NCBI GenBank assembly: GCA_019054805.1
Contig: JAHQIY010000003.1
Coordinates: forward strand, 1,798,001 to 1,862,000
DNA length: 64,000 nt
Origin: Brachionus manjavacas
Lineage: Eukaryota > Rotifera > Eurotatoria > Ploima > Brachionidae
Reading direction: 5' to 3'
Shown here: positions 20,892 to 62,943 of the stretch, one piece after another
How the letters are laid out: each line of letters begins with the position of its first letter
How positions within the stretch are numbered: the first letter of the stretch is position 1
Position numbers and translations under genes: made by a program
Notes under the pieces: generated by a model
Told to the model about the DNA's origin: nothing
The model's database searches: none
The model's input: the letters and a program-made list of their open reading frames with translations, nothing else

Positions 20892-21317
20892 TCATACATG
20901 AACTTGTATGATTAAAAATAGATCACTTCTTTTTCTTATTTCAACCAGATTTGGAATGTTAAAAGCCTTCAATCTGCTTTCATACGGTTTGTTTCTAATT
21001 GAAGAAACAAATTTCGTAGCTTTGCGTTGAATTCTTTCAACATTCTCACAGTCAGAATTAAGAATTAGAGACCACACAGGAACCGAAAATTCCAAAAGAA
21101 GACCAACAAAAATTAAATGCAGAGATCTAAATAATTTACAATCATAACATTTCTTTGCATAATTTAACACTTGATTTTTCCATTTCAGATTTGAATTGAA
21201 AATAAATCCAAGATCGCTTTCGGTTTCTGACGTTGATAACTGCTTACCATTCATTAGATAAGAAGAATCCATGACTATGACCACGCATTTTGATATCTGA
21301 AGAGAAGAAGATATCAA
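20892..21317 (-). pseudogene. LINE reverse-transcriptase C-terminal fragment
   Basis: This 141-codon minus-strand block shows an ISKCVVIVMDSSY region and SETESDLGFIFNSNLKWK, then a thumb-like strand LLEFSVPVWS and NVERIQRKATKFVSSIRNKP. These are the post-FADD strand and C-terminal domain of the same LINE group as the neighbouring long copy. It lies just upstream of that copy's 5' end in the same orientation. It is a separate 5'-truncated insertion, since the upstream copy already has its own C-terminus. The catalytic motifs are missing. Confidence 0.65.
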
Positions 21318-21484
21318 AATATATTCTTCGCTTCAATTGTTATTTCGCTGCACTATTGGATAAAGGTCAATCTAAAGTGTTGACAGCTTTTTTGTTTGCT
21401 ACCTGATAAATGGGAATATTTTCATGCTGATAAAGAAAAATATCGCATAGCGTCTCATAATAGTATATCATAATAGTATATGAT

Positions 21485-22275: not shown

Positions 22276-24030
22276 GGGTCTTGTACCATTCGTGGACAAT
22301 TGTCCATGGACAATTGTAGATGTCTGATTGGTGGACAATTAAAAAAAAAAATAAAAAAACATAAAATACCTGGACAATTATTCAATTAGGTGGACAATTA
22401 ATTGAAAAGTTGGACAATTTTATTAGAAAAAAAATCAATCAAAATAATCAATAAACTTAGTCTCTCTAATTATTTTTACGACTTCTTAAATTATATTTTA
22501 TCGGCAAATCACACGTACTCTCTATTGCTTCATTATTTCTATCGCTATTCTTCTTTCTCCCTCTTTTCTTTGGAGATTTTTTCGACAATTACTTGGTCAA
22601 CATTTTCAAAGGCTGGTATGGTGGCCGGAGCATCTTTAATAAGATTTAGTCTAGCTATCTGTCTAGATTTAGGACTTCCGCTATCACTTACAACAACTGG
22701 ACTCTCCACTCTTTCCATAGCTGAACTATCACCAGCCTGATAATCATGGTCTCCGTGGTTGTCATACAATGGAAGGTCATTTGAGATTAATTCATCATCT
22801 GAAACAACATCAAACTCTTCGCCACCAGTCTTTACTAAAGCTTCAGCCATCTCATTCATATCAAATCTACTTGAATCATATTTAGATATTTCGTCGATAA
22901 TAGCATCAGCGGCATCACCTCTTCCGGTCAAACAAGCCTTACGACGCCAACAAAACTCAACTAAATATGACTCTAAATAATCTCTGGAAACACCCCTCAT
23001 TACTTTGATATGCACCTTAGCAGCATTCCAAACCGACTCAATGCTGTTTGTGTGCACTCCGTTTTCTGGATTAACGAAATAAAGTTGATGATTGACCGTC
23101 AAGTGTTTGAAGTGTTTGTCTAAGTCACGGATACGACTATAAGCCTTCCAACAATCTGAGTAGATCAAAGTACCAGGAAGGATAAACTTGTAGATAACAT
23201 TTAATAAATTGAAGGCATCTCGTTTTGGCACAACGATAAACAAGCATAGTTTGGAACCTCGCTCGTACATACCAAACACCCATATTTGCCTCCTTTTTAG
23301 ATCCTTGCCTTTGTTGTGTTTCACTTTGATAAATATCGATTCGTCGATCTCGACGATTTTACCATCACCACCGAGTTTAAAATTTTCAATATCTAATGAC
23401 ATCACTGCTATTTGTCTAAGTCTTTGTTGGTACGTTATAAGAGTTTGACGTTCAACTGGGACCATACACGTTTGATCTACCTGTCGGACTTGAATGGCCC
23501 AATAATGGACAACTTTAAGGAAAGTCTTCAAATCAATACGAAATTTTTCTAAATAAGTTCCATCTCTGAGACTGCATCTCTTGCTATCGGTCGTACATCG
23601 CCATGCAAATCCATCTAAAGAATCCTGCCTTTCGATGAACTTCATAGCCATCTGACATTTTGGACATGCTTTGGATTTTGGGATAAGACCTTTAACTTTG
23701 AACCATTCGACAATACTACTTTGATCAAGTTCAATAACCTCAATCGCTTTGAATGATTCAAGTGGTTTACTAAGAAGAGTCATTTTTTGTAAACTTTTTG
23801 AAAAATTGTTTTTTTCAAATGTGTTAGCAGAGAATTGAATCAAAAAAGAAAGCGCTTAAATTAATTGTGATTTTTTTTTTGCAAAACAAAATACACTTTA
23901 GTTTTAATGGACAATTTTTCAAATACCTGGACAATTATTCAATTAGGTGGACAATTAGATAAAAAAATTGTCCACCAATCAGACATCTACAATTGTCCAT
24001 GGACAATTGTCCACGAATGGTACAAGACCC
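22276..24030. mobile_element. Complete Merlin (ISXO2-like) DNA transposon
   Basis: The left end starts GGGTCTTGTACCATTCGTGG at 22,276. The 65 bases 22,276-22,340 are the exact reverse complement of 23,966-24,030. The element is flanked on both sides by AAAAAACT (22,268-22,275 and 24,031-24,038), an 8 bp target duplication. That matches the 8-9 bp known for Merlin. Total length is 1,755 bp with one intact transposase gene. Inside each end, TGGACAATT recurs many times as likely transposase-binding sites. Perfect ends and an open gene mean a very recent, possibly active, insertion. Confidence 0.95.
22545..23783 (-). CDS. Merlin/ISXO2-like transposase
   Basis: The intact 412-residue frame starts at ATG 23,783; the open frame extends 20 codons further upstream but without an ATG. 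The N-terminal zinc-binding region holds CPKC at 40-43, then WRC and a fourth C near residue 70. The ISXO2 DDE domain follows, with D147 in VEIDES, D210 in YSDCWKAY and E249 in HTNSIESVW. These are the three catalytic acidic residues. A WRR motif closes the domain. The last 100 residues are acidic and serine-rich, with no recognised fold. The enzyme would cut and paste the flanking 65 bp repeats. Nothing suggests inactivation. Possible alternatives within the ISXO2 family do not change the predicted function. Confidence 0.92.
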   Translation of the reverse strand: MTLLSKPLESFKAIEVIELDQSSIVEWFKVKGLIPKSKACPKCQMAMKFIERQDSLDGFAWRCTTDSKRCSLRDGTYLEKFRIDLKTFLKVVHYWAIQVRQVDQTCMVPVERQTLITYQQRLRQIAVMSLDIENFKLGGDGKIVEIDESIFIKVKHNKGKDLKRRQIWVFGMYERGSKLCLFIVVPKRDAFNLLNVIYKFILPGTLIYSDCWKAYSRIRDLDKHFKHLTVNHQLYFVNPENGVHTNSIESVWNAAKVHIKVMRGVSRDYLESYLVEFCWRRKACLTGRGDAADAIIDEISKYDSSRFDMNEMAEALVKTGGEEFDVVSDDELISNDLPLYDNHGDHDYQAGDSSAMERVESPVVVSDSGSPKSRQIARLNLIKDAPATIPAFENVDQVIVEKISKEKREKEE

Positions 24031-24339
24031 AAAAAACTAATTCGACAATAATCTTAATATTTGAAAATACAGTGATTTATTTTTTGCGAGCAAAACCAAA
24101 TGCCCCCGCTGCAGATGGGGGTAATGTCTACCATAATAGTTCACCAGAAAGAACAGGAAAGGTGAGCTAAAAATGAATTAATTTTTAGTATTGAGGAGTC
24201 TAAAAATGACTGAGACGAGAACAAGATCAAATAAGATAGAATCTCAATAGGAGGAATTTTCGATCGAATCAAAGTAGATAAAAGAAAAATCTCAAACATT
24301 TTTCGTTTCAGATCAAGGCAGGGTCAAAAGCATTCGCCA

Positions 24340-24899: not shown

Positions 24900-26625
24900 A
24901 ACTTTACGTAACAAATCAAGTGAGGTGTAAGCCATAACGGAACATTTTGATCCAGATCTACTCTTCATATGTGAAATTTGGTTTAAAAGCTTTACAGACG
25001 TCATCAGGATTCATAATTATGATTGTCTATTTTAAACCGAGAATATTGAAATGGTGGTGGTGTATGTTTTTTTTTCAAAAATTCTTTCTCAAAACTAGTA
25101 CGGAAGTCGAGGATGATACCTTGTCTGATTCGTCCATTGAGCAAGTCTGTGTGTCTACTGGCTGAATGTATTTATAGACCGCCGCTTTGTCACAAAATAA
25201 CTCAATTATGTGACTCACTGAAAAGGACTAAAAGTCTTCGGGAGTCAGATTTTTATTCGGGGATCATTTTGTTTGGAGATTTTAACTTCACCAATATTAG
25301 GTTCGTCTGATTGTCAACCTAATACTGATGTTTTCAGAAATAGAATAGATGAGCTCACGTTTTTAGAGTGTTTCAGTGAATGCTTTTTTCATCAACATGA
25401 TAGCTTTATACGTTTATCAAGAGTAAAAATTGTTCAACTAATGTCCTAGATTATTTGATAACTGATGTGCCAGCTCGAATCGGAGAAATCGAAACGTCCA
25501 CGCTCCTTGGGTGTGTGAATCAAGGTCACTTAAGGCTAGTGTGAGAATATCTTGTGGTAAATGAAAAAAGTAGAGAAAAGTTTTCCTCAAGGAGATACAA
25601 TTTTAAAAAAGCTGATGACAAGTCCATAAGAGAATTCTTCAACGATTTTGATTGGTTTTCTGTGCTTTGGAGTAAAACCATTGAAGAAATTTATAAAATT
25701 TTTTACGATTGTTATTGAAAAGCAAGGGTAGTCTGGTGAACCAGTTTTTCCAACTATTGTCAATGCCAAAAATAAAAAATCAACCCCATTGGTTTATCAA
25801 GAAAGTGAAGAGTGCCGTTAGGGAAAAGTTCAATCTTTGGAAACGATATACTAGCTTAGGTCGGAAGTCGAAAAGATTAATGGATGAATATTAACTATGT
25901 CGAGTTAGATCTAATGCAGTGATCAAAAAAGCTAAGTCCATTTTTGAATTTTCTTTTTTGAAGAAGATTAAGTCCAACCAAAAAAGAGTTTATTAGTACA
26001 TAAATGGCGAAGAAAAGCTCAAGAACACAATTAAATCCCTTAAAAAAATTAATGGAAATTTATCTTCTAATTCCTAGTAAGTAGCAAATGCGCTCAATGA
26101 CTATTTCAAATCGGTATTTATCCAACCCAATAGTTTTGAATCTCCTGTCTTCGAATCCCGGACATCAAAGACATTTTATTTTAACATTGAAGAAAAGACT
26201 TTTCCGAATAATATTAAAGGTATTCTTGAAAAGTTAGATGTATCCAAATCGATCGGTCCAGATGAAATAGATTCAAACTTCTAAAAGAATAATGCCGATT
26301 GTCTGACCTTACCGATATCGATTCTTTTCAAGAGGTCTATTGAAAAGAGTAGATTACCAAGAATATGGAATTTTGCAAATGTAACACCTCTTTACAAGAA
26401 TGGAGAAAGAACTGATGTAGGGAATTATCGACCTGTCTCCCTAACTTGTATACTCTGTAAAATGCTAGAGAAGATAATAAAGCAAAGTCTTTTGAAATAT
26501 CTGATTATCAACAAGTTGATGACGAATTTTAGCATGGCTTTGTTCCTAACAAATGTGCACTACAAATTTATTGGAATCACTTGATCTAATAACAAGTTCC
26601 TCAAGCGAAAGTAATTGTATAGATG
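24900..26625 (+). pseudogene. LINE ORF2 remnants: endonuclease and start of reverse transcriptase
   Basis: Pieces in three frames can be put in order: a LFGDFNFTNI strand with an upstream YRPP (near 25,170-25,300), a long basic linker with QPHWFIKKVKSAV (about 25,770-25,830), then NVTPLYKNGERTDVGNYRPV near 26,370-26,440 and HGFVPNK near 26,530. Many in-frame stops and shifts show this copy has been dead for long. It ends at the left LTR of the Gypsy element. Confidence 0.65.
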
Positions 26626-26836
26626 TGTAAAGTCTCGGTTTTGGACTTTAGGGATTTAAGCCGAGGAATAAATAAAACAATTAAATTTAGTTAGAGTTTA
26701 TTTAAATGGAATCCAAAATTACAATAAATAGTTAGTGGTTTATATAGTAGCTAGAACGTGTGTTTTAGCTGCAGTTAATCTTAGAACATGCAACTCTAAT
26801 AACATATTGAGAGATGTCAAGACTTGGGTCTTAACA
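26626..26836 (-). repeat. Gypsy 3' LTR (211 bp)
   Basis: On the plus strand it begins TGTAAAGTCTCGG and ends CTTAACA, i.e. TG...CA ends on either strand. It matches 32,984-33,194 with about five substitutions. Confidence 0.95.
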
Positions 26837-26850
26837 TACCTCCCCCTTTT
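26837..26850 (-). promoter_or_regulatory. Gypsy polypurine tract
   Basis: Directly 5' of the 3' LTR the minus strand reads AAAAGGGGGAGGTA, the expected plus-strand primer. Confidence 0.85.
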
Positions 26851-26986
26851 ACTAGAAAAGAGTTCCAGCCTCTTAATTTTCGACCTTACTAATAAAACCA
26901 CCAAAAAAAAAAAAAAACAAAACAACAAAACAAAACAAAAAAAAAAAAAGCAAACAAAAGAAACACCAAAAAAATGGAGACTCACA

Positions 26987-27301
26987 CTAGTTATAGAGGA
27001 CTTTGTGGTGGTAGTTTTGGGCTAACTGCGAACGGCAAACTGGGCAACGTTCTCGGACGTCACGATCGGAGTTGCGGACGTACCCGTACATACAGTCCTC
27101 GCACATGAGGTGTCCGCATTGTGTCGAGACGATTGAAGGGCAGTTCTCGAACTGCTCGAGGCACACTGGACATGGTCCTCCAAGGAATCGATGGAACTTT
27201 GTCGTTGGTGGCCTGGAAAGTTGTCTGATCGACACAAAGTTCGATATTTTGACTGGCTGTTGGCTTCCGGTGACCTGTCTTTGAACTTGCGATGGCCATC
27301 G
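26987..27301 (-). CDS. Extra Gypsy gene, part 2: C3HC4 RING finger
   Basis: Directly downstream of the TAA that ends the RRM-coiled coil, and in the same reading frame, a roughly 100-codon stretch contains a complete RING finger: CPVC, then after 14 residues CGHLMCEDC, then after 15 residues CPVC, i.e. C-x2-C-x14-C-x-H-x2-C-x2-C-x15-C-x2-C. RING fingers of this type usually act as E3 ubiquitin ligases. The frame ends at 26,987, about 140 bp before the polypurine tract. An ATG 3 bases after the TAA (27,299) opens a different frame without zinc ligands. Joint reading gives a TRIM-like order reversed (RNA-binding, coiled coil, RING last). Confidence 0.75.
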   Translation of the reverse strand, partial: RWPSQVQRQVTGSQQPVKISNFVSIRQLSRPPTTKFHRFLGGPCPVCLEQFENCPSIVSTQCGHLMCEDCMYGYVRNSDRDVRERCPVCRSQLAQNYHHKVLYN

Positions 27302-27874
27302 TTAGTTTCCTTGTTCGGTTAGGAGATCAAGCACCAAATCTCGACTGTTGTTCAGTTGCACCTGCAGTTGTTGTTGGTTGAGTTCCAATCGGCTGACTTG
27401 ATTTTGCAAGTCATTTATTAGCTGGCGGCTCTCTGCCAATTCAGTTTCAGCATTGGAAGTCCGCTGATTGGCAGCTTCAGCCTCCAGTCGCTGTTGTTGG
27501 CACTGTTTGGTGCTCTGTTCGAGCTTTCGCTTTTCTTCGCAAAGCTCCTCCATCAACCGAGACACTTTTGGGGTTACTGACTCCTCCTGTCGATGGTGAT
27601 TGATCGTGGTCGGGCGTGGGTTAATCTCGAACCAGATGTTGGTTTCGGGGATACTGACTTTATTTAGGAAGACGGTGGCTTCCTGATGTATTGAGCTGTC
27701 CTGATATCTTAGGAAAGCGTAATTTGTCTTGTGGAAACCCCGGTTAGGACCCATTCTTAGCCATTTGATCGGACCGAACTTTTGTTTATATTTGTCCAGC
27801 TCTTTTCGGAGTATTTCGTTTGCATTTTGTACATTCGGGACGCCGTGTACCATAATGTCGTGTTCGTCTTGCAT
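27302..27874 (-). CDS. Extra Gypsy gene, part 1: RRM-like domain plus coiled coil
   Basis: A 190-codon frame starting at ATG 27,874 lies after integrase, where envelope genes sit in other elements. Residues 5-88 look like an RRM: the RNP2-like strand IMVHGVP (7-13), helix, and RNP1-like TNYAFLRYQD (50-59). Residues about 104-186 are a long Q/E/L-rich coiled coil (LMEELCEEKRKLEQ ... VSRLELNQQQLQVQL). G+C is close to half, strikingly above the flanking pol. A single TAA ends it, and the same frame continues into a RING finger. There is no signal peptide or membrane span, so it is not an envelope. The role is unknown; RNA binding with oligomerisation is plausible. Confidence 0.75.
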   Translation of the reverse strand: MQDEHDIMVHGVPNVQNANEILRKELDKYKQKFGPIKWLRMGPNRGFHKTNYAFLRYQDSSIHQEATVFLNKVSIPETNIWFEINPRPTTINHHRQEESVTPKVSRLMEELCEEKRKLEQSTKQCQQQRLEAEAANQRTSNAETELAESRQLINDLQNQVSRLELNQQQLQVQLNNSRDLVLDLLTEQGN

Positions 27875-27913
27875 TTTTCGATTTTAATAATTTTGAGTTT
27901 AAAATTTTAAATG

Positions 27914-27947
<34 letters not shown>

Positions 27948-28150
27948 TGTATTTTAAATTTTAGTGGTTATTCAAAAATTGTTTTACAAAAATTAATAAT
28001 TTGTGTCAGATTTAACTTAGCATTTTGATTCATATTTTAATAGAAAAAGAAAAGGTTCTTCTGGATTACTCCTCCTTTTGTTTTACATCATTACTAGAAA
28101 ATATACAAAATATTATAAAATAAATAATTATTTAGAAAACAGTTCAATGA
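27875..28150. other. Spacer between integrase and the extra gene, with 29-base T run
   Basis: The spacer is AT-rich and holds an uninterrupted run of about 29 T (27,914-27,942), i.e. A on the element sense strand, just upstream of the RRM-type gene. No splice site or promoter could be singled out. Confidence 0.5.
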
Positions 28151-28153
28151 AAA

Positions 28154-29627
28154 TTAGTATCCTAACCTATCTACGGGCTTAATTGAGCGTTTGCTCCTCC
28201 TAAGAAGGTCTTGTCGATTACTAATCTTCTTTTGAAAATAGTGGTTTGGTTGAAATGTCTCATCCTCATCATCAGTTGATTCCAAAACTGACTCGGATTG
28301 TGATACCAAATCTTTATTCGAATTAAATTCAGCAATTTCTTGGGCGTCACTTTGGATAGCAGTATCAATTTTGTTAGGCATATTTTTAGGCGATTTGGTC
28401 TTCACTATTTTCTTATTTGACTTTTTAAATAAACTCTTCTTGTCCTTACTATCATCCTCCACTACTGAGTCGTCAGGTTTGAGATACGAACCAAAGAAAC
28501 GTTTTAAACGGTTATGGTGCACCAGTTTTTGTTTGGATTTTGGTTGATTGAACCTTTTAATTTTATAGTTTACTGGGCCAACCCTTTCCTGTATGATAAA
28601 TGGGACTTCCCATTTGGGTGACAATTTCTTTGAGAGACCTTTCTTTATTTGTGGTTGGCTTAGCATTACCATATCGTCGATTTTGTACTCGACGGGCTTG
28701 ATATTCCTATCATGTTGAATTCTAGATCTATTAACCATAAAATCCTTATTCTTCTCGACACTCTTATAAACCTCACGAAGCTTTTCTTGGAGATCTCCGA
28801 CGAACAATTTGACTACAATGCTTCCTTGGCTAGATTCATCCAATTCATAGATTTCGTTGTTCTTCTCATCTTCAATTATTAAATCTAATGGGATTTTTGG
28901 TTTTCTTCCATATACAACTTCGAATGGTGTATGGTTAGTGGTTGCATGGGTTGACGTGTTGTATGCATATGCAATATATTGTAAATACTCATCCCAATCA
29001 TTTTGGTGCTCGTTGACGAAGCATGAAAGCATTGTTTTTAATGTGCGATTGAAACGCTCGGTCAAGCCGTCACACTCAGGGTGATATGGTGAAGTCTTGA
29101 GTTTATGAATGTCAAGTAGTTCATAGATTTTGCTTAAAAGTTCCGATTGAAAGTTTTTCGCACCGTCTGTTAGGATATTGATGAAGAGACCATGGATCAT
29201 CATGAGGTTAATTAGACGCTTGGCGACGCTCTCAGCAGTAATGTTTTGAAGAGCGCAAACCACTAAAATGTAAATATTTCCATCTTTTGAAAGTGGGAGC
29301 GGACCAATTATATCACAGGTTACAAGCTGAAATGGCCTGGTGGGGAGTAGGGGTTGCAATTTAGCCTTGTGAAGGGTTTGTGGATTTTTTTATTTTTTGA
29401 CAGGTAAGACAACTTTTTACAAAAGTAATGGTTCTGTTCTTTAGAGCAGGTCTAAAGAATCTAGACTGGATTTTATCCAGAGTCTTCCTGACTCCTAAAT
29501 GTCCTTGAAATATTGAGCAATGGATAAAAGTTATTATTCTATCTACCATATGTTCCGGTAGTATTATCAGTTTTTGAAACGATCCGTCTTCTTGTGGTTT
29601 AAACCAATACAAGAGTTGATCAACGCG
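28154..29627 (-). CDS. Gypsy integrase (one frameshift)
   Basis: The first block (29,612-29,361) holds the zinc-binding H-H-C-C region (HMVDRIITFIHCSIFQGHLG ... SCLTCQKIKK). An indel in an A run near 29,385 shifts the frame. The second block (29,359-28,154; 401 codons) has FQLVTCDIIGPLP (first D), NILTDGAKNFQSEL (second D) and CDGLTERFNRTL (E), the catalytic D,D-35-E core, though about 10-15 residues after the first D seem deleted (LVVCALQNITAESVAK). The C-terminus has the GPF/Y-like PKWEVPFIIQERVG strand and an acidic, lysine-rich tail. It would insert the cDNA with a 4-base stagger. Confidence 0.85.
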
Positions 29628-30560
29628 TCATAAGTCATCATAGTTCTCGTAAAGAACACTTTTAAGGTTTGTATTCAATTGCTCTATTTCGATAATCGGC
29701 TTTGTGTTACTACTTTTCTCGATTAGTTGTTTAATCCACAGAATGCAACTTTCTTTGTTCTGTTCTGCTGGCGTAATTAGAATATTGCAATGAGCCTCAT
29801 CTTTGTGCTCAATTTTTATATTTTCGGAGATGAAGTTTATAATTTTGTCATCATCTTCTTCTGGTTGGTCGTCCGACTTGTCCTGGTTCTCCTGAACATT
29901 CCATCTTGAAAGCGCATCCGCGTTTGAATGAATCTTGCCACTTCGATATATAATACGAAAAGTATAGTTGTTAATTCTGATTAACCATCGTACTAACCTT
30001 GAGTTTGGAGTTTTACAAGATAAGAGCCATGACAGCGGCTGATGATCAGTAACAATATCGAATTCTCGGCCATAAAGATATTGGTGAAAGTGTTCGACGG
30101 CTAGTACGATGGCCAAAAGTTCTTTTTCGGTTGTCGAGTAATTTCGTTGGGCCTTGTTTAGTGGTTTACTAAAGTATGCTATTGGCCGCAAATATCCATC
30201 CAATTCGTGGCTAAGCACTGCGCCAACGCCAGTGTTACTTGCGTCGGTTTCCAGGACAAACTTCTTTTTGAGATCTGGTAGTATGAGAATTTTATCACGC
30301 GTAAGATAGTTTCTAAGTGTGTTGTATGCATCTTCACAATTTTCGTTCCAGTTGAGCTCATATTTGTTCGAGGCTTCTTCTTTTGTTGTTAGTTTGTATA
30401 ATGGGGCGGCAATCTTAGCAAAATTTTCAATGAATTTTCGATAATATTGTGCAAGTCCGAGGAAGCTCTGAAGTTGAGTCAAGGTGTTAGGTCGTTTGTA
30501 TTGGAAAAGAGCTTCACATTTCGACTTGTCTGGCTTGATAGAACCGCCTGAAATTACGTG
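29628..30560 (-). CDS. Gypsy RT connection and RNase H
   Basis: After the frameshift the frame gives FLGLAQYYRKFIENFAKIA, the standard end of the polymerase. RNase H follows with FVLETDASNTGVGAVL (first D), NYSTTEKELLAIVLAVEHF (E) and FDIVTDHQPLSWLL (D), then the R-L-V-R-W strand and a chromatin-distal linker. Catalytic residues are intact. It degrades the RNA strand during DNA synthesis. The frame stops at a single TGA near 29,625, after which integrase continues in the same frame. Confidence 0.85.
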   Translation of the reverse strand, partial: HVISGGSIKPDKSKCEALFQYKRPNTLTQLQSFLGLAQYYRKFIENFAKIAAPLYKLTTKEEASNKYELNWNENCEDAYNTLRNYLTRDKILILPDLKKKFVLETDASNTGVGAVLSHELDGYLRPIAYFSKPLNKAQRNYSTTEKELLAIVLAVEHFHQYLYGREFDIVTDHQPLSWLLSCKTPNSRLVRWLIRINNYTFRIIYRSGKIHSNADALSRWNVQENQDKSDDQPEEDDDKIINFISENIKIEHKDEAHCNILITPAEQNKESCILWIKQLIEKSSNTKPIIEIEQLNTNLKSVLYENYDDL

Positions 30561-30562
30561 TC

Positions 30563-31165
30563 CTAAAAAACTATCTCCTGCTTTGCTACTTCACATTTTT
30601 TTATTTTAACTGAGAGTTGGAATTTTTTCAATTCGTTGACTACAAGTTCTATGTGTTTAAAGTGTTCGACTAGGGTCTCTGAATGAATCAGAATATCATC
30701 CAAGAAAACCACTACAAATCCAGCAATAATGAATCTTTTCAACACTTGATTCATCGGCATTTGAAATGTAGCTGGGGCGTTTGTGAGCCCCATCGGCATT
30801 ACGAGGTAATCGAACAAACCCCATTCGCATGTGAATGCCGTTAGTTTTCTACACTCCTTTTTCATTAAAATTTGAAAATATCCCGTATAAAGATCAAGTT
30901 TTGTAAACCATCTCGATTGAGCCAACAATGCATACAAGTCCTCGTTGTTTGGTAATGGATGAGCGTCTTTGAGTGTTCGTTCGTTCAACGAACGGTAATC
31001 AATTGTGACTCTTATTGAACCATCCGGTTTCGAGACTAGCATGAGCGGTGAAGCCCATGAAGAGTTGCTAGGTTGGATCAAATTCGCGGCTAACATTTCG
31101 TCTAGCATTGTTTTGAATTCTTCTCTTTTACTGTAGGGTATACGTCTCATCTTTTGCCTTATTGG
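30563..31165 (-). CDS. Gypsy reverse transcriptase
   Basis: Begins with PPIRQKMRRIPYSKREEF, the usual entry of Gypsy polymerases. It runs through LMLVSKPDGSIRVTIDYRSL, motif A WFTKLDLYTGYFQI, FDYLVMPMGLTNAPATFQ and motif C VVVFLDDILIHS. The catalytic aspartates of motifs A and C are kept. Near 30,575 one base is missing in a T run, which ends the frame. The next frame carries LGHVISGGSIKPDKSK and the RNase H part. The polymerase copies the element RNA into DNA. Confidence 0.88.
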   Translation of the reverse strand, partial: PIRQKMRRIPYSKREEFKTMLDEMLAANLIQPSNSSWASPLMLVSKPDGSIRVTIDYRSLNERTLKDAHPLPNNEDLYALLAQSRWFTKLDLYTGYFQILMKKECRKLTAFTCEWGLFDYLVMPMGLTNAPATFQMPMNQVLKRFIIAGFVVVFLDDILIHSETLVEHFKHIELVVNELKKFQLSVKIKKCEVAKQEIVF

Positions 31166-31168
31166 TGG

Positions 31169-32116
31169 TTAACTTGGGTCGATCATTTTGATTTCGTGTT
31201 CGAAGCAGGGTGACGGCTTTAGCTCCTTTAGTGATGCTGCTGAAATTGATGTAATAAGTGTGTTGATTTTCTCAAGGTAGTGGTTTAAATTTATGTCGGA
31301 GATGGTGTTGATCAAGCATGATTTACTAAGTGTATTTTGTAGATAGTACTTGGGTTCGTTGACGAAGTCTTTACTTAATTGCTTCACGGTTTCTCGAAGA
31401 TTATCGATTGGTTGAGAAAAATATGGAAACTGCTCTAGTAAATCCATGCCTAAAAGACAGTCTGAGACCAAGTCTTTAATGACCACTAGGAATGTAAATA
31501 TAGCGGTTTCGCCTATTCTACATTCTGCATATGTTCTACCTAAAGTTGCAAGACCTGCACCACCAGCGCCAGCGATCACATTCGGCACTTTTTCCAAAGG
31601 TGATGGATTCTTGAGTTGACTGTACACTCTGTCACTGATTACGCTTATTTGCGCACCGGTATCAACGATGTTAGATGTAGGTAATTCATTAATTAAACAC
31701 CTACCTTCAATTAGGTTATCAATATTTTCAATATCTTCTTCCTTTTGGAAAACTTTTTCTGTCGTGTCAACTTTGGAGTTTAGTGGTTGAACATTCTCGC
31801 CTTGGTGTTCGATTGAATGGTGTTCAACACGTACCGTGTTGTCTTGTTTAATAGTTGGTACTTTCCTCTTCTTTTGATTACGTATTGCCCGAACTTGATT
31901 CTCCGAATTGTTTCTGTTTCTTGGATTGCTTGGGTTTTTAAAGCAATCTTTGGCTAGATGTTTGTGGTGTGTACACAGGGTACAAAAATCATGATTAGCT
32001 TCATTCTCGATGCTTCGTGGGTTCTCCTCGAAAGTCACTCGAGTGTGCATTTGTTTTGGGGTCTGATATTTTATAAATGCTTCCTCTAGCTGGAAGGCTT
32101 TATTCAAGACGTCTGA
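31169..32116 (-). CDS. Gypsy nucleocapsid zinc knuckle and aspartic protease
   Basis: This frame directly continues Gag after one TAA. Near its start CTLCTHHKHLAKDC is a C-x2-C-x4-H-x4-C knuckle that binds RNA. After a basic linker, NIVDTGAQISVIS carries the protease active site D-T-G. Downstream, SDCLLGMDLLEQF is the second hydrophobic-GxD strand of retropepsins. The protease would cleave the polyprotein as a dimer. The frame stops at a single TAA (31,169-31,171), with PPIRQKMRRIPYS of the reverse transcriptase following in the same frame, so gag, pro and RT appear to derive from one long frame. Confidence 0.85.
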   Translation of the reverse strand, partial: SDVLNKAFQLEEAFIKYQTPKQMHTRVTFEENPRSIENEANHDFCTLCTHHKHLAKDCFKNPSNPRNRNNSENQVRAIRNQKKRKVPTIKQDNTVRVEHHSIEHQGENVQPLNSKVDTTEKVFQKEEDIENIDNLIEGRCLINELPTSNIVDTGAQISVISDRVYSQLKNPSPLEKVPNVIAGAGGAGLATLGRTYAECRIGETAIFTFLVVIKDLVSDCLLGMDLLEQFPYFSQPIDNLRETVKQLSKDFVNEPKYYLQNTLSKSCLINTISDINLNHYLEKINTLITSISAASLKELKPSPCFEHEIKMIDPS

Positions 32117-32914
32117 TTATTTGTTACACGTTGGGGGTCTGCACAACTCCTGTTTGATCTTAATATCGTAGATTCCACGAATAAAACGATCAACAATTAG
32201 TGGTTCAAGCGTAGGCTCATTCTGACCTGGATAAGCGACTTCTGCTAAATGCTCCCATTCACACAAATAATTATAAATGTTCTCTTGTGGTTGTTGTCTT
32301 CGTGAAGCAAATTCAATGAGAGGATCATTGTATCTGTACCATTTACCATACAATTTTTTCAAAACCTCTTTGATTTCCTCATAAGTGGCGTTTGATCTTC
32401 GATTCAGGATGCGTTGTTCAAGCTTGTTTAGGCATCTGTCTTCAATTAAAGCTAATAATGCGCCTGTCTTGTCTTGTAACCTCATTGCATACCTCTCGAA
32501 ACTCTTAACCCACGAATTGAAGTATTTGTCCTCAGTAAAACGACTAACCGTGTATGTAGGAACATTCAATACTGGTAGCGGATATTGTGTCTTGGATTTG
32601 TTGAACCAACTGATAGGGGAGTTAATAAGAGTCCACGTGTTTCTTAATCCAGAACCACTAAACCACCTGATCCCTATTAGTATGAAGACTAAAACCACAA
32701 TCGAGATAACGAGTAAAACCGATTGGTTTAATTGCCAGTACTGTAAGAATTGGTACTCTACCTTCTCAGCCAAAATGGACAAAATACTCTGATATGTTAA
32801 ATCTTTAGCATGTGGCATTGGGTTCTTTTGAGTCTGTATTGGTTCGTTTCGGAAAATGTATCCGATTAAATTGGATAGCTGTTGCCTCATCATTTGATCA
32901 AATTTTGATTCCAT
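32117..32914 (-). CDS. Gypsy Gag (capsid) with an N-terminal membrane segment
   Basis: The 265-codon frame starts at ATG 32,914. Residues about 66-82 (SVLLVISIVVLVFILIG) form a strongly hydrophobic helix, unusual for a Gypsy Gag. The capsid-like region follows from about residue 130 (FNSWVKSFERYA...YGKWYRYNDPLIEF...QENIYNYLCEWEHLA), the typical retrotransposon gag fold with the R-x-Q-x2-E-x2-x2-Y motif. The frame ends at TAA 32,117-32,119, but the same frame continues into the nucleocapsid/protease part, so the stop either separates gag from pol by readthrough or is a mutation. Gag would assemble the particle around element RNA. Confidence 0.8.
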   Translation of the reverse strand: MESKFDQMMRQQLSNLIGYIFRNEPIQTQKNPMPHAKDLTYQSILSILAEKVEYQFLQYWQLNQSVLLVISIVVLVFILIGIRWFSGSGLRNTWTLINSPISWFNKSKTQYPLPVLNVPTYTVSRFTEDKYFNSWVKSFERYAMRLQDKTGALLALIEDRCLNKLEQRILNRRSNATYEEIKEVLKKLYGKWYRYNDPLIEFASRRQQPQENIYNYLCEWEHLAEVAYPGQNEPTLEPLIVDRFIRGIYDIKIKQELCRPPTCNK

Positions 32915-32963
32915 GATGTGTTTTTGTTCTCTTCAATGGATCCTTCTAAAATATATAGCAGAA

Positions 32964-32981
32964 TCCTCCCGTTGGGCACCA
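32964..32981 (-). promoter_or_regulatory. Gypsy primer binding site, tRNA-Lys-like
   Basis: Two bases inside the 5' LTR the minus strand reads TGGTGCCCAACGGGAGGA. TGGYGCCCAACG is the pattern complementary to the 3' end of tRNA-Lys. The next bases (TT) would extend pairing into the T arm, so minus-strand DNA synthesis is probably primed by tRNA-Lys. The exact host tRNA was not seen. Confidence 0.75.
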
Positions 32982-32983
32982 AA

Positions 32984-33194
32984 TGTAAACTCTCGGTTTT
33001 GGACTTTAGGGATTTAAGCCGAGGAATAAATAAAACAATTAAATTTAGTTAGAGTTTACTTAAATGGAATCCAAAATTATAATAAATAGTTAGTGGTTTA
33101 TATAGTAGCTAGAACGTGTGTTTTAGCTGCAGTTAATCTTAGAACATGCAACTCTAATTACATATTGAGAGATGTCAAGACTTGGGTTTTAACA
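32984..33194 (-). repeat. Gypsy 5' LTR (211 bp)
   Basis: The partner of the LTR at 26,626. The plus strand begins TGTAAACTCTCGG and ends TTTAACA, followed by the target duplication GATG. Confidence 0.95.
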
Positions 33195-33579: not shown

Positions 33580-34340
33580 TAAAGAAATTAATGGAGGAAC
33601 AAAACAAAAAAATTGGAGTCACAACTTGCTAAATTTAAAAATATTGAAAAAGAAAATAGCAAAAATTTAGACAGTTACGTTGAGGATTTTGATGATGTTT
33701 TAACTGAGATGGAAGATGAACGTGAAAATGGATGACGTTATCCGGTTAGTTCAGCTCAACCTTTTTGAAGGTAAACTTTCTGGGGATGTAGAAAGTTGGT
33801 TATTTAGTTAAGAAAAAAATTTGAGGAATGCAAATATCCCTTAGAGTGAAAAAAATTTTTATGCTAGTTCATACTGTAAGGGAAACGCTCAATAGGTTTA
33901 TAAGGCTATTCTAAAAGCAAATACGTAAATCACTTGAACAAGAATTTTTAAAAAGGTTCAAAAACAAAAACATTGATGATATTGCGATCAAAAAGTAAGT
34001 AAGAATAAAACAGAATGGTTCAATAGAGGAGTTTATTAACCAGTTTCAATTGAGTCTGAATCAATCTAGTGAATTGATCCTTAAGTTTAATATTAGGCCT
34101 GAAATAGAATGTTATTTAGATATGAGAGAACCAGAAACAATTAATCAAGCTTTAGTTGGGCAATTTTACACGAAAATAATGTTCTAAAGAGAGAAAATAG
34201 AGAGGATAGAATTAATGCGTTTAGAAGCAAAGGAAATAATATTTCAAAATGTTATTATTTTGGTAAATCAGGAAATTTTAAAGCAGATTGTTATGCTAGA
34301 AAAAGATCTCAGAATTTTAAGATAAGAAGCGAAATTCCTA
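33580..34340 (+). pseudogene. Gypsy gag and degenerate zinc knuckle
   Basis: Several frames give capsid-like helical sequence (for example FLKRFKNKNIDDIAIKK near 33,940 and FINQFQLSLNQS near 34,040). At about 34,245 CYYFGKSGNFKADC is a nucleocapsid knuckle in which the second C became F and the H became N. RNA binding by this knuckle would be lost. Confidence 0.55.
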
Positions 34341-34360
34341 GAAATTTAACGAAAAAAGCT

Positions 34361-35071
34361 ATGATTAATATAGTTCAAAGAGACCACAAGAGAATCAAAT
34401 ATAATAACGAAAATAAGCCAGACAATTTTCAAAAAATAAGCGTCGATGATGATGAAATGGATATTAGTGCAGTACGAACTGGATGCTTTAAAAATTATGG
34501 ACAACAAAACAAATTAAAAATTAAAGGAATAACTAATGGAATGAACACTGAAATGTTAATAGACACAGAAGCTCAAAGATCAGTCATTTCTGAGAAGGCT
34601 TTTCAAAGATTAAAATTAGATGAATCAAAAAATGTTAAGATAGTAAAACCAATTGGAAGCCAATCTTTTGAGTCAAAAATAACAAAACACGTAGAAATTG
34701 AAACTTTTGGGAAAGTGATAAAATTGAAATTTGCAATTGTACCATACTGTTTTACTGATGTTTTACTTGGAGCAGATTGGCTTATAATGGAAGATGCTGG
34801 TACTTGGTTAAGTAGATAAATGGTATGGTTTGGTGATGAATCAGAAATTATTAAATTTACCCAAAATAAATGTGTACAAAAATGTCATAGATTTACAAAA
34901 TTTACCCATACAATTGGGAGGAATGAAGATTTAGACAAAAATATAGACGAGAGTATGAACGAAATAGATCCATTTGTCAATGATTATTTTTTGTATGAAT
35001 TAGATCAAGACAAGACATATCTAAATATTAGTATTCAAGGAAATAATGTTGATATAGAAAAATATTTTTAA
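34361..35071 (+). pseudogene. Gypsy aspartic protease remnant
   Basis: A 152-codon frame contains MLIDTEAQRSVISEKAF, in which the active-site triad D-T-G has become D-T-E, and later CFTDVLLGADWLI, the hydrophobic G-x-D strand. A stop at 34,819 separates it from an 83-codon acidic spacer (34,820-35,071) that leads to the polymerase. Glycine-to-glutamate at the active site would inactivate the enzyme. Confidence 0.65.
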
Positions 35072-35159
35072 AAATTGATTGAAAAAAATTTAGATGTTTA
35101 TGCCACAGATTTGTTAGATTTACGAAGATTTGTATTACGATTAAATTCAAAATTAGGAC

Positions 35160-36000
35160 AACATGCGAGATACCAGTATATTCATACTCATATGATGCTT
35201 CTCAAGTTGAAAGAGAAATAATGAAACAAGAAATAGACGCAATGCAAAAAAATGGCATTATAAGACCATCAAGAAGTGCTTGGAGTGCACCAGCGATAGG
35301 AGTGAAGAAAAAGATGGTTTATGGCATTTTTGAATAGACTATCGAAAATTAAACAAAGAAATTAAACAAGACTATTTTCTTATTCCGAGCGTTAGTGGTA
35401 CATTGGATAAATTAAGTGGTGCTTCAATTTATTCTTCCACTGATTTAAAATCTGGAAATTGGCAAATTCAAATGGAAAATGAATCAACAGAAAAAACTGC
35501 ATTTACTACACAAGATGGACATTTTAAGTTTACAAGAATGCCATTCGGATTAAAAAATGCTCCTTCCGAATTTTCAAGAGTCGTGAATAAGGCTATTAGA
35601 CATTTATATAAAAAAAAAAGCATATAAAACATTAAAACATTTAATAAAAGATCATTTAAAAAATTTTAATAAAAGTTTTCAAAGTTTTGAGAAAAAAATT
35701 TACGAATAAATCCAAAAAAATATAGCTGGTTCGAAAAATCGATAAAAGTTTTAGGACACATTGTTTCCAAAGACTCGATACAAGCAGATCCAGAAAAAAT
35801 TTTGAAGATAAAAAATTATATAGAGCCGCGTAATACAAAAGAGCTTCAAATTTTTCTTGGATTACCAGGATTTTATAGACGATTTATCAAGGACTTTGCA
35901 AAAATTGCATCACCACTTTACGCACTACTCAAGAAAGACAAGAAATGGAATTGGACAGAAGAATGTAGAAATTCATTTAAACTACTAAAAAATTAGTTAA
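35160..36000 (+). pseudogene. Gypsy reverse transcriptase remnant
   Basis: Pieces in several frames: IIRPSRSAWSAPAIGV near 35,260, DYRKLNKEI near 35,340, motif A SSTDLKSGNWQIQM near 35,430 and FTRMPFGLKNAPSEF near 35,540, then ELQIFLGLPGFYRRFIKDFA near 35,845. The YxDD motif C region around 35,640 is deleted or scrambled, so the enzyme is dead. Confidence 0.7.
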
Positions 36001-37440
36001 TAAACGATCCAATTATAAAACAACCAGATTTATCAAAACCCTAGAATTAATAACTGATGCGTTTAATGTTGCATTAGCTGCAATTTAAGCTCTAGAAAAT
36101 GACGAAGGACTAGAACCATCGTATGTTATGCGTCGTGTCTTTTAAAAGGAAGTGAATTACATTTCAGTATATTGAAAAAATAATGTTTAGCTGTTGTTTG
36201 GGCTATAAAGTATGTTAAAATTTATCTATATCTATATTTTAACGCTACGTGGTCTGATAACCGACCACGTAGCGTTGAAATAGTTAAAAGATATAAAGGT
36301 CCAATTGGACGTTTAGCTAGATGGGCAATATTTCTCCAAGGCTTCGATTTTGAAGTGAAACATCGACCTGGAAAAAAGCACACCAATGCTGATGCTCTTA
36401 GTCGACCAATTCAAGTCCAAGCTTTAGAGAAATTTGAATCCAGACAGACCATTAAACAACAAGAATTAGACGATGATACTGAGAGCGAAGAAGAACAAAC
36501 TCCTGATATTCAAAGATCTTCGAATTAGTTAGATTTTAATGAAAATGGTCCGTTAATGCATTATCTGGTGATATCGAACCTGGAAATCTCGAAATGAAAA
36601 AAATAGAATTTAACAAAATTGGAGTGAAATTAGTAATTCATGATGACCAAATCTGGTAGAGAGAAAATGAAGATTATCCTTATTCTGATTAAATGGTTCC
36701 TAGAATTGAAAAAAGAGAGCAGCTCATTTGGCCTGAACATTTAATCGGACATTCCGATGATAAAACAACATACGAAAATGAAATGACAGTATTATAGGAA
36801 ATAAATGCTAAAACAAATTAAGAAAATGTTAAAGAAATGTGTTAAATGTTTACAACGTAACCGAGGAAGAGTTTTAGAACATTTTGCAAAAGCTAAAATA
36901 TTGACTTACATCTTTCAAAGAGTTTGCATTGACTTACAATTTGGTTTTCCAGTTACACTTGACGGTTATAAAGGTTTGTGTGCAATAATGGAAAACCTAT
37001 CAAAATTTCCAGTCGCCTTTCCTTTTCGAAGTAAATCAGCCGAAGAAATTGCATTATGCCTATTTTGTGCTCCACTTGAAATTCTTTCCGATCGAGGACT
37101 AGAACTTAAAAAGTTATCCTAGCACTTTGCCAGTTGTTTGGCACTGAAAGAAGGGTAGCTTAAGCATACCATCCCCGCACAAATGGTCTGGTTGAAATTT
37201 TTAACAAAGCTATTACGGATTTCATAAGCATCAAAACCCTGAAGAATGGGATAAATGGATTGTTTACGTATTTCTTGCTTATCGTTCGAGAATCCATCCA
37301 TTAACAAACCAAACTCCATTTGAATTAGTTTTTGGCCGAAAAATTGAAATGTTTGAAGATTGGAATAAACTTGATAGAGAATCTGAAATTGAACCTTTAT
37401 TATAAAAAAAAATCATTAATACATATGGACTAATATGGAA
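36001..37440 (+). pseudogene. Gypsy RNase H and integrase remnant
   Basis: RNase H is recognisable by ARWAIFLQGFDFEVKHRPG and NADALSRP near 36,320-36,410. The 105-codon frame at 36,805-37,122 has CVKCLQRNRG (zinc-binding end) and RVCIDLQFGFPV (first D), with EILSDRGLE (second D). At about 37,150-37,200 AYHPRTNGLVEIFNKAI gives the E. All three acidic positions are still there but in broken frames. The sequence fades after about 37,400. Confidence 0.7.
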
Positions 37441-62002: not shown

Positions 62003-62482
62003 TTATTTTAAATTTGCCTCTTTTAATTTTTTACAAACTTGTCTTATGTGAGAAAGTTGTTCGTGAAAGGTTTTTGAATGTATAGTGATATCATCCTCAT
62101 AAACTTCAACGAAAGGAAGGTCACCTAGGGTCATCTGCATAATCCTACAGAAGTCTGTTGGGGAATTCTTTAAGCCAAAAGGTAGTCTTAAAAATTCAAA
62201 ATGACCATCTGGAGTGGAAAAAGCAGTTTTATGAATTGAACTTTCATCCATTTTTACTTGCCAGTAGCCTGACTTTAAATCAAGTGCAGTAAACCAATTC
62301 GAATCCCTCATTCTATCAATTACATTTGTATTATTTGGAAGTGGCCATCTTTCTGTTAAAGTGTTTTCGTTTAACTTTCTATAATCTATACAAATTCGTT
62401 TATTACCGTCTTTTTTTGGAACAACAATTACAGGAGACGACCAAGCCGATTCAGATGTTCGAATGATTCCAGCTTTTATCAT
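62003..62482 (-). CDS. Gypsy reverse transcriptase (partial)
   Basis: A 159-codon block opens with MIKAGIIRTSESAWSSPVIV and continues with VPKKDGNKRICIDYRKLNE, motif A WFTALDLKSGYWQV, FEFLRLPFGLKNSPTDFCR and motif C FVEVYEDDITIHS. Both catalytic aspartate motifs are present (Y-E-D-D rather than Y/F-x-DD with V/L). The frame is interrupted at both ends by stops: upstream PPIYKRPYRMSENER near 62,530 and downstream in the connection region. This is a moderately decayed copy. Confidence 0.8.
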   Translation of the reverse strand: MIKAGIIRTSESAWSSPVIVVPKKDGNKRICIDYRKLNENTLTERWPLPNNTNVIDRMRDSNWFTALDLKSGYWQVKMDESSIHKTAFSTPDGHFEFLRLPFGLKNSPTDFCRIMQMTLGDLPFVEVYEDDITIHSKTFHEQLSHIRQVCKKLKEANLK

Positions 62483-62943
62483 TTTACTGATTTCGGTTCT
62501 TAAAAATTAGCGTTCGTTTTCTGACATTCTATATGGTCGTTTATAAATAGGAGGTACATTTTCATCAATCAACCTGATTGCGTGTTTATACACCTCACAG
62601 CTACCGAATTCTTCTATAGAATTGGCAAATAAACATTTTGCTTCGGTTAGAATTTTATCGAAAGCTTTTTGCTGATTGAATGATAAAGGACTTAGCGGGT
62701 TGACTTATATGATTTGTTTTCCCAAAAATAATCATCTGAGGTTTCTGGATTGACATCAGATAGAAAAATATCAAAAATATTTTCTTCTTTATTATTTTCG
62801 CTATTTTCTAATTTAAAATCTGAGTCAGAAAATTTTATTAGTCCTTAGGATGGAAAAATTCCTGAATTTGTTTTTTGAAACCAATCTAGACCTAACAAAA
62901 CATCATGGTCTTCATGATCGAAAACAATAAATTCGATTAAACA

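What the first reader, a model, noticed from the sequence alone, without database searches (positions are those of the whole stretch)
26987..27874. Gypsy element carrying an RRM-coiled coil-RING gene in the envelope position
Directly seen: downstream of integrase and before the polypurine tract, one reading frame (a single TAA apart) encodes an RRM-like domain with RNP2/RNP1-type strands, a long coiled coil and a perfect C3HC4 RING. Its G+C is near half, unlike the rest of the element and the very AT-rich host DNA. Known: extra ORFs in this position are usually env-like; Gag or pol fusions with host domains are rarer. Inference: a captured host gene or a novel accessory protein that could ubiquitinate host restriction factors or control element RNA.
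Basis: partly seen in the sequence, partly recalled or inferred. Interest (0 to 1): 0.88.

Follow-up and report, generated by a model that had tools for sequence, protein, structure and literature searches.

The report
Rotifer retrotransposon carries an RNA-binding ubiquitin-ligase gene
A family of jumping genes in a tiny aquatic animal (a rotifer) has long carried its own extra gene for a protein that looks able to hold RNA at one end and tag other proteins for disposal at the other; selection has kept that gene, so it probably helps the element survive in its host.

Summary
The window contains a Ty3/Gypsy element (LTRs 26626-26836 and 32984-33194, 4-bp duplication). Between integrase and polypurine tract lies an 888-nt minus-strand gene: RRM, long helix, C3HC4 RING, broken in this decaying copy by one TAA. 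The host genome (Brachionus plicatilis or close kin) holds more: 20 further loci were fetched, 16 with pol upstream, six with one open frame over most of the gene. Databases add B. calyciflorus and ten unnamed relatives. AlphaFold models of the window's own N-part and of a relative are RRMs. The RING is closest to RNF4 among solved structures. Several subfamily pairs show dN/dS 0.16-0.40, others weaker; between families pN is far below saturated pS; close copies look neutral. Higher G+C marks ORF3 in 12 of 12 copies measured, so it does not signal recent capture. Some more distant families have an RRM-type ORF3, partly with no RING found; half of those sampled have no clear ORF3. Best reading: an RNA-tethered ubiquitin ligase serving the element. 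Activity and targets are inferred. Nine answered literature searches found no description.

The parts
26987..27874 (-). ORF3 gene (RRM, coiled coil, RING), interrupted by one TAA in this copy
27590..27874 (-). RRM domain (about residues 1-95)
   Evidence: AlphaFold2 model of the window's own sequence; structural matches
27311..27571 (-). Long helix, predicted coiled coil (residues 102-188)
   Evidence: weak coiled-coil Pfam matches
27302..27304 (-). In-frame TAA stop; open frames at this place exist in other copies
27032..27172 (-). C3HC4 RING finger, all eight ligands present
   Evidence: Pfam zf-RING_2 E 1.1e-9; RNF4 is the nearest solved RING for two relatives
26851..26986 (-). T-rich (sense) stretch between ORF3 and the polypurine tract
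   Evidence: T fraction 0.53 in the 170 nt after the stop; 0.34-0.62 in the 17 copies
26837..26850 (-). Polypurine tract next to the 3' LTR
   Evidence: same position in the copies shown
26626..26836 (-). 3' LTR, 211 bp
32984..33194 (-). 5' LTR, 5 of 211 differences from the 3' LTR; GATG on both sides of the element
28154..29389 (-). Integrase part of pol
   Evidence: Pfam Integrase_p58_C E 1.3e-9
29628..31168 (-). Reverse transcriptase and RNase H in two overlapping frames
   Evidence: Pfam RVT_1 7.5e-32, RT_RNaseH 1.1e-38
31169..32116 (-). Zinc knuckle and protease region
   Evidence: frame; motifs by eye, names recalled, no family search made
32117..32932 (-). Gag-like frame with a strongly hydrophobic segment
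   Evidence: called gag by position, no family search made

Best explanation
ORF3 is a conserved, selected accessory gene of a rotifer Ty3/Gypsy lineage. Its protein has an N-terminal RRM, a long predicted coiled coil that would make it a dimer or oligomer, and a C-terminal RNF4-like RING. The most likely mechanism: the RRM tethers the protein to RNA (most simply the element's own RNA), the coiled coil brings RING domains together, and the RING recruits a charged E2 so that proteins on or near that RNA are ubiquitinated, to the element's benefit (host silencing or restriction factors first, its own Gag or RNP second). Shown: gene, position, conservation, selection between families, RRM fold in the models, ligand conservation. 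Inferred: RNA binding, dimerisation, E3 activity, targets.
For: 20 loci fetched because of ORF3 hits, 16 of them with pol upstream on the same strand by tblastn. One open frame from most of the RRM into the RING in 6 of these 20; between their families 26-46% of compared codons encode the same residue. RRM in models and structural matches. RNP1-type residues T49, Y51, F53, R55 invariant in 12 of 12 rows. Ligands complete in 13 of 17 genome rows and 10 of 12 database rows; Arg after the last ligand invariant in the 11 rows and the 12. RING nearest to RNF4 for P0002 (single-RING chain 1.7e-8, next non-RNF4 6.6e-4) and, by a smaller margin, for L010 (9e-6 against BRCA1 1.3e-4). Selection: four comparisons with L018 give dN/dS 0.25-0.40 (Fisher P <= 1.1e-5), L032-L033 0.28 (P 0.022), L025-L026 0.16 (P 4.8e-15, but pS 0.73 is near saturation); in 20 between-family pairs pS is 0.75-0.95 and pN 0.31-0.53. 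Distances of RRM and RING co-vary (0 of 2000 permutations reach the observed value) and both follow integrase (88 and 6 of 2000). No transmembrane-like segment.
Against: No biochemical or expression data. RNP2 has Met where an aromatic is usual (recalled rule). Pfam RRM scores of the window and of P0002 are below the curated cut-off. L019-L021 0.71 (P 0.11), L021-L022 0.63 (P 0.16), L019-L022 0.66 (P 0.048) and L020-L028 0.49 (P 0.013) show weak or no constraint, and 12 of 12 pairs of close copies are not distinguishable from neutral. Four of 17 genome rows lack one ligand (L011, L020, L026, L028), and L018 lacks the Arg; P0010 lacks two ligands and P0014 one. Eleven of 22 RT-chosen loci gave no clear ORF3 match. 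pTM 0.38 and 0.47: the models do not fix how the domains are placed to each other.
Confidence: 0.6

Rival explanations
1. ORF3p is mainly an RNA chaperone or particle protein, like LINE ORF1 proteins (RRM plus coiled coil); the RING is a structural zinc module for assembly rather than a ligase.
For: RRM plus coiled coil is a LINE ORF1 theme (recalled; PMC4120745 on modular ORF1s seen in a search listing only). L037, L038 and L047 show an RRM-type match and no RING in the stretch fetched, so the RRM may be the older, core part; L038 is weak.
Against: The Arg after the last zinc ligand and the RNF4-like tail, which matter for E2-ubiquitin handling in RNF4 (recalled), are conserved; a purely structural zinc site would not need them.
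Confidence: 0.2
2. ORF3p limits the element itself: it ubiquitinates the element's own Gag or pol product, or rival elements, and so keeps copy number tolerable.
For: Only four close copies of this family, the window's included, were found by ORF3; the element's RNA is the nearest platform.
Against: No direct evidence; low copy number has many other causes, and LTR-only copies were not surveyed (one search scored 40 of 139 candidates).
Confidence: 0.12
3. Recently captured host gene fragment, a passenger with no function for the element.
For: The RING resembles a cellular RNF4; G+C 0.49 against 0.38 for pol; close copies look neutral.
Against: Present across families with saturated synonymous sites and constrained between them, co-diverging with integrase; the G+C difference is in 12 of 12 copies measured.
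Confidence: 0.03
4. Envelope-like gene, as often assumed for a third reading frame after integrase.
For: Position.
Against: No transmembrane-like segment in the 20 sequences scanned (highest 19-residue hydropathy 1.53); the domains are RRM and RING.
Confidence: 0.01

Closest known systems
Third-ORF genes of bdelloid rotifer LTR retrotransposons (Vesta, Juno, TelKA; PMC5408684: passages and sections 10 and 11 read)
   Same: Rotifer LTR elements with a non-envelope gene after integrase; family-specific acquired ORF3s
   Different: Those are DEDDy exonuclease, GDSL esterase, paramyxovirus-type env, coiled-coil or TM types; RING, RRM and ubiquitin do not occur as words in that text. Their sequences were not compared here
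RNF4 (RING ubiquitin ligase)
   Same: RING and part of its C-terminal tail are the nearest among solved structures
   Different: ORF3 has an RRM and a long helix; RNF4's SUMO-binding motifs (recalled) were not looked for
LINE ORF1 proteins with RRM and coiled coil
   Same: RRM plus coiled coil in a retroelement protein (recalled)
   Different: Different element class; here ORF3 position, RRM before the coil, RING at the end
Giant Gypsy-like elements of planarians (PMC6431247: passages read)
   Same: Gypsy-like elements reported with unusual motifs, some tied to ubiquitination (AIR1 with RING Zn-finger, MATH_TRAF_C, BIR)
   Different: Giant elements; no RRM-coiled coil-RING protein in the passages seen, and the word RRM does not occur in the text
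TRIM proteins
   Same: RING and coiled coil
   Different: RING at the N-terminus with a B-box (recalled); ORF3 has an RRM instead and the RING at the C-terminus

Membership tests
Ty3/Gypsy LTR retrotransposon | LTRs starting TG and ending CA, with a short target duplication | tested here: met
   LTRs TGTTAAGACC...AGACTTTACA, 5 of 211 differences, GATG on both sides
Ty3/Gypsy LTR retrotransposon | Order RT, RNase H, integrase | tested here: met
   Pfam matches in that order
RRM domain | Beta-alpha-beta-beta-alpha-beta fold | tested here: met
   predicted models and structural matches
RRM domain | Pfam RRM_1 curated score | tested here: not met
   14.4 bits against 20.7 for the window; 7 of 12 relatives match at E <= 0.05, best 1.3e-4
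RRM domain | RNA binding | not testable with these tools
   RNP1-type aromatics conserved
RING finger | Eight zinc ligands in C3HC4 order | tested here: met
   all eight in the window; 13 of 17 genome rows, 10 of 12 database rows
RING E3 ligase | E2-dependent ubiquitin transfer | not testable with these tools
   only residue conservation is available
RNF4 / SUMO-targeted ubiquitin ligase | RNF4-like RING | tested here: met
   solved structures only, no tree of cellular RINGs was built
RNF4 / SUMO-targeted ubiquitin ligase | Tandem SUMO-interaction motifs (recalled) | not tested
   no scan made
Envelope-like third ORF | Transmembrane segment | tested here: not met
   20 sequences, highest hydropathy 1.53
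Bdelloid ORF3 types (DEDDy, GDSL, env, CC, TM) | One of these domains | tested here: inconclusive
   no DEDDy, GDSL or env match for the window or for the 10 proteins; one search shows only 25 of 52 families. It does have a coiled coil, and the bdelloid CC sequences were not compared
LINE ORF1 with RRM | RRM plus coiled coil | tested here: inconclusive
   both parts present in the model; no comparison with ORF1 families was made

The most novel reading that the evidence does not exclude
A lineage of animal LTR retrotransposons encodes an RNA-tethered ubiquitin ligase that destroys host silencing factors (for example small-RNA effectors) where they sit on the element's transcripts: a retrotransposon counterpart of lentiviral accessory proteins that hijack ubiquitin ligases (recalled), but with the ligase carried by the element itself, built by adding an RNF4-like RING to an older RRM-type third gene.
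Probability: 0.3. Interest if true: 0.85.

Novelty: new variant of a known kind. Interest (0 to 1): 0.62.

Why it matters
Third genes of LTR retrotransposons are often called env by position (PMC5408684, passage). Here several families keep, under purifying selection, a predicted RNA-binding ubiquitin ligase instead. If active, it would give transposable elements their own tool against host control and a naturally evolved RNA-directed protein degrader. The many diverged families in one small genome allow comparative tests of which part (RRM or RING) is indispensable.

Tried and rejected
Rejected: env-like gene. Recent capture. Chance frame. Poly(A) tract before the start as a conserved signal: runs of 16-37 A in 7 of the 17 copies (W, L020, L023, L038, L040, L045, L047) and of 8 or fewer in the other 10, so treated as a variable simple repeat. 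A programmed stop at the TAA: the three closest copies have an open frame at this place, and the window copy also has two stops in gag-pol that are absent at the same places in 6 of 6 other copies checked. Viral contigs: 8 pattern matches, none confirmed.

Distant RT-chosen loci (22, RT identity 38-63%, from 150 scored of 613 candidates; not a random sample; L032 was also in the ORF3 list): 8 gave an ORF3-profile match at per-domain E <= 1e-3 (L031, L032, L033, L034, L036, L037, L043, L047; E-values for three frames only, and L043 and L036 have whole-frame E of 0.16 and 0.0059), three more of L043's family gave 0.002-0.005 (L038, L040, L041), and 11 gave nothing clear. Profile comparison (hhalign probability): L032 97, L037 95, L047 93, L036 59, L038 27, L045 9, L039 about 0, so the RRM claim for L036, L038 and L045 is tentative. 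Search with the L038 protein found one partial relative.

Literature: nine answered searches and word look-ups in the main text of six papers gave no description of this gene; the library holds open-licence papers only, and supplements were not read.

Limits: the 20 ORF3 loci were chosen by ORF3 hits; L012, L021, L022 and L027 had no pol match upstream. One search was given 18 of the 21 copies (L016, L022, L027 left out), and its distance test keeps the close pair L023/L024. One search was a first count with loose edges, superseded. P0001 (partial), P0013 (truncated) and P0015 (another RING protein) were left out of A4. One search scored only the 7996 candidates sharing most words. VIA rows test the RRM only; row 47, an RRM plus coiled-coil protein, has rmsd 30 and says nothing.

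Full report
What is there. The window (G000:C3:1798001-1862000 of a 114-Mb genome) contains a Ty3/Gypsy element on the minus strand, 26626-33194, with 211-bp LTRs that differ at 5 positions and GATG on both sides. RT, RNase H and integrase follow in the usual order, preceded by gag-like and protease-like frames recognised by eye. The finding's gene lies between integrase and the polypurine tract exactly at 26987-27874, with one TAA at 27302-27304. This copy is decaying: it also carries stops at the gag/protease and protease/RT junctions that are absent at the same places in 6 of 6 other copies checked.

Host. A database protein 97% identical to sister copy L010 over 75% of its length is named 'E3 ubiquitin- ligase RNF4 isoform X1, partial [Brachionus plicatilis]'; the host is taken to be B. 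plicatilis or close kin (inference).

The gene is a family. The RING part has 22 matches and the N-part 25 in the genome, the window's own included and some copies split into several matches. Four copies, the window's included, are 94-100% identical in the RING part; the others range from about 25 to 62%. Of 20 further loci fetched because of these matches, 16 have pol upstream on the same strand. Six of 20 keep one open frame from most of the RRM into the RING (L010, L014, L017, L019, L020, L023): in that frame L017 and L023 lack the first strand, L019 ends before the tail, and L020 has lost one RING ligand. Public databases hold relatives with the same domain order: one from B. calyciflorus (P0014) and ten without a name (sources 'lgn' and 'ena'); two NCBI records of B. 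plicatilis (P0010, P0013) join integrase to ORF3 in one gene model, the second ending before the RING.

Fold. AlphaFold2 of a relative (P0002, mean pLDDT 80.5, pTM 0.38) and of the window's own N-part (84.6, 0.47) both give an RRM, then a long helix; in P0002 Pfam places a RING after it. Foldseek and VIA-align rows are by title mostly RRMs or particles that contain them. By sequence alone the RRM is weak: 7 of 12 relatives match RRM_1 at E <= 0.05. The RING's nearest solved relative is RNF4, by a wide margin for P0002 and a smaller one for L010. All eight zinc ligands are present in 13 of 17 genome rows (missing one each: L011, L020, L026, L028) and in 10 of 12 database rows (P0010 lacks two, P0014 one).

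Selection. Counted on natural open pieces: 12 of 12 pairs of close copies (families of W and of L013) do not differ from neutral (lowest P 0.21), nor does L023-L024. L013, L014, L015 and L017 against L018 give dN/dS 0.37, 0.40, 0.25 and 0.39 (P 1.0e-9 to 1.1e-5); L025-L026 0.16 (P 4.8e-15, synonymous sites near saturation); L032-L033 0.28 (P 0.022); L020-L028 0.49 (P 0.013); L019-L022 0.66 (P 0.048); L019-L021 0.71 (P 0.11) and L021-L022 0.63 (P 0.16) are not significant. Between families (20 pairs) pS is 0.75-0.95 and pN 0.31-0.53; L031 against L032 and L033 gives pS 0.89 and 0.85 with pN 0.27 and 0.24. RRM and RING distances correlate (Spearman 0.78, 9 copies, 0 of 2000 permutations), and both correlate more weakly with integrase distances (0.43, 7 copies, 88 of 2000; 0.46, 9 copies, 6 of 2000). 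So ORF3 is mostly inherited with the element and kept by selection; with so few and partly related copies the permutation counts are only a guide.

Composition. ORF3 has higher G+C than pol in 12 of 12 copies, from six families, where both were measured (0.41-0.51 against 0.34-0.43). This is a lasting property of the gene, not a mark of recent capture.

Depth. Among 22 loci chosen by RT identity (38-63%), the ORF3 profile matched 8 at per-domain E <= 1e-3 and 11 not clearly. RING-type sequence occurs in L033 (Pfam 6e-7) and, by similarity to L033's RING region, in L031, L034 and part of L032, and weakly in L036. L037, L038 and L047 show an RRM-type match with no RING found in the stretch fetched. 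The simplest reading is that the RRM-type third gene is older than the RING. This is tentative: no RT tree was built, several matches are weak, and some loci are decayed.

Mechanism. Proposed: an RNA-tethered, coiled-coil-paired RING ligase acting on proteins at the element RNA. Fold, ligands, the Arg after the last ligand and the RNF4-like tail are shown; what these residues do in RNF4 is recalled; RNA binding, pairing, activity and targets are inferred.

Known relatives. Bdelloid LTR elements carry exonuclease, esterase, env, coiled-coil and TM third ORFs (PMC5408684: passages and sections 10 and 11). Planarian giant Gypsy-like elements were noted with RING-, TRAF- and BIR-related motifs (PMC6431247: passages). 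I found no description of an RRM-coiled coil-RING third gene (searches listed under Tried and rejected). I rate it a new variant of a known kind: a new type of acquired third gene, kept over several families.

Noticed in passing
window about 22276-24032: A 436-codon frame (22545-23855, minus) that looks like an ISXO2/Merlin-type transposase (recalled) between inverted copies of a sequence with GGACAATT; probably a DNA transposon (by eye).
   Followed up: no
window 34145-37122: A second, decayed Gypsy element on the plus strand (protease, RT, RNase H and integrase pieces by eye).
   Followed up: no
window 62006-62554: A further Gypsy RT match in the window on the minus strand, with a match of equal score on the other strand just outside the window.
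   Followed up: no
window 25000-26600 and 20892-21332: Remnants that look like non-LTR reverse transcriptase frames (by eye).
   Followed up: no
L012:7534-8376: An ORF3 relative with no pol or LTR match in the 9.4 kb fetched; gene and downstream flank have no other DNA match in the genome; frame broken only by one TAA, G+C 0.37. Either a lone relic or a candidate domesticated copy.
   Followed up: partly
window 32117-32932 and gag regions of L009, L010, L011, L013, L014: The Gag-like frame has a strongly hydrophobic segment (19-residue hydropathy 2.3-3.0), lower in L017, L020 and L024 (1.4-1.9); a membrane-anchored Gag would be unusual.
   Followed up: partly
L014, L015, L016 (C13:375-397 kb): Copies of one ORF3-bearing family lie head to tail within about 20 kb.
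   Followed up: no
L025:4272-7389: A stretch with the integrase tail is repeated in tandem (period about 446 bp) before ORF3.
   Followed up: no
L049 and L050: Other Gypsy families have what looks like a C2H2 zinc finger at the end of pol and no ORF3 match in the stretch fetched (by eye).
   Followed up: no
P0010, P0013, P0016: NCBI gene models of B. plicatilis that join integrase (P0010, P0013) or a stretch with a hydrophobic segment (P0016) to parts of ORF3.
   Followed up: partly
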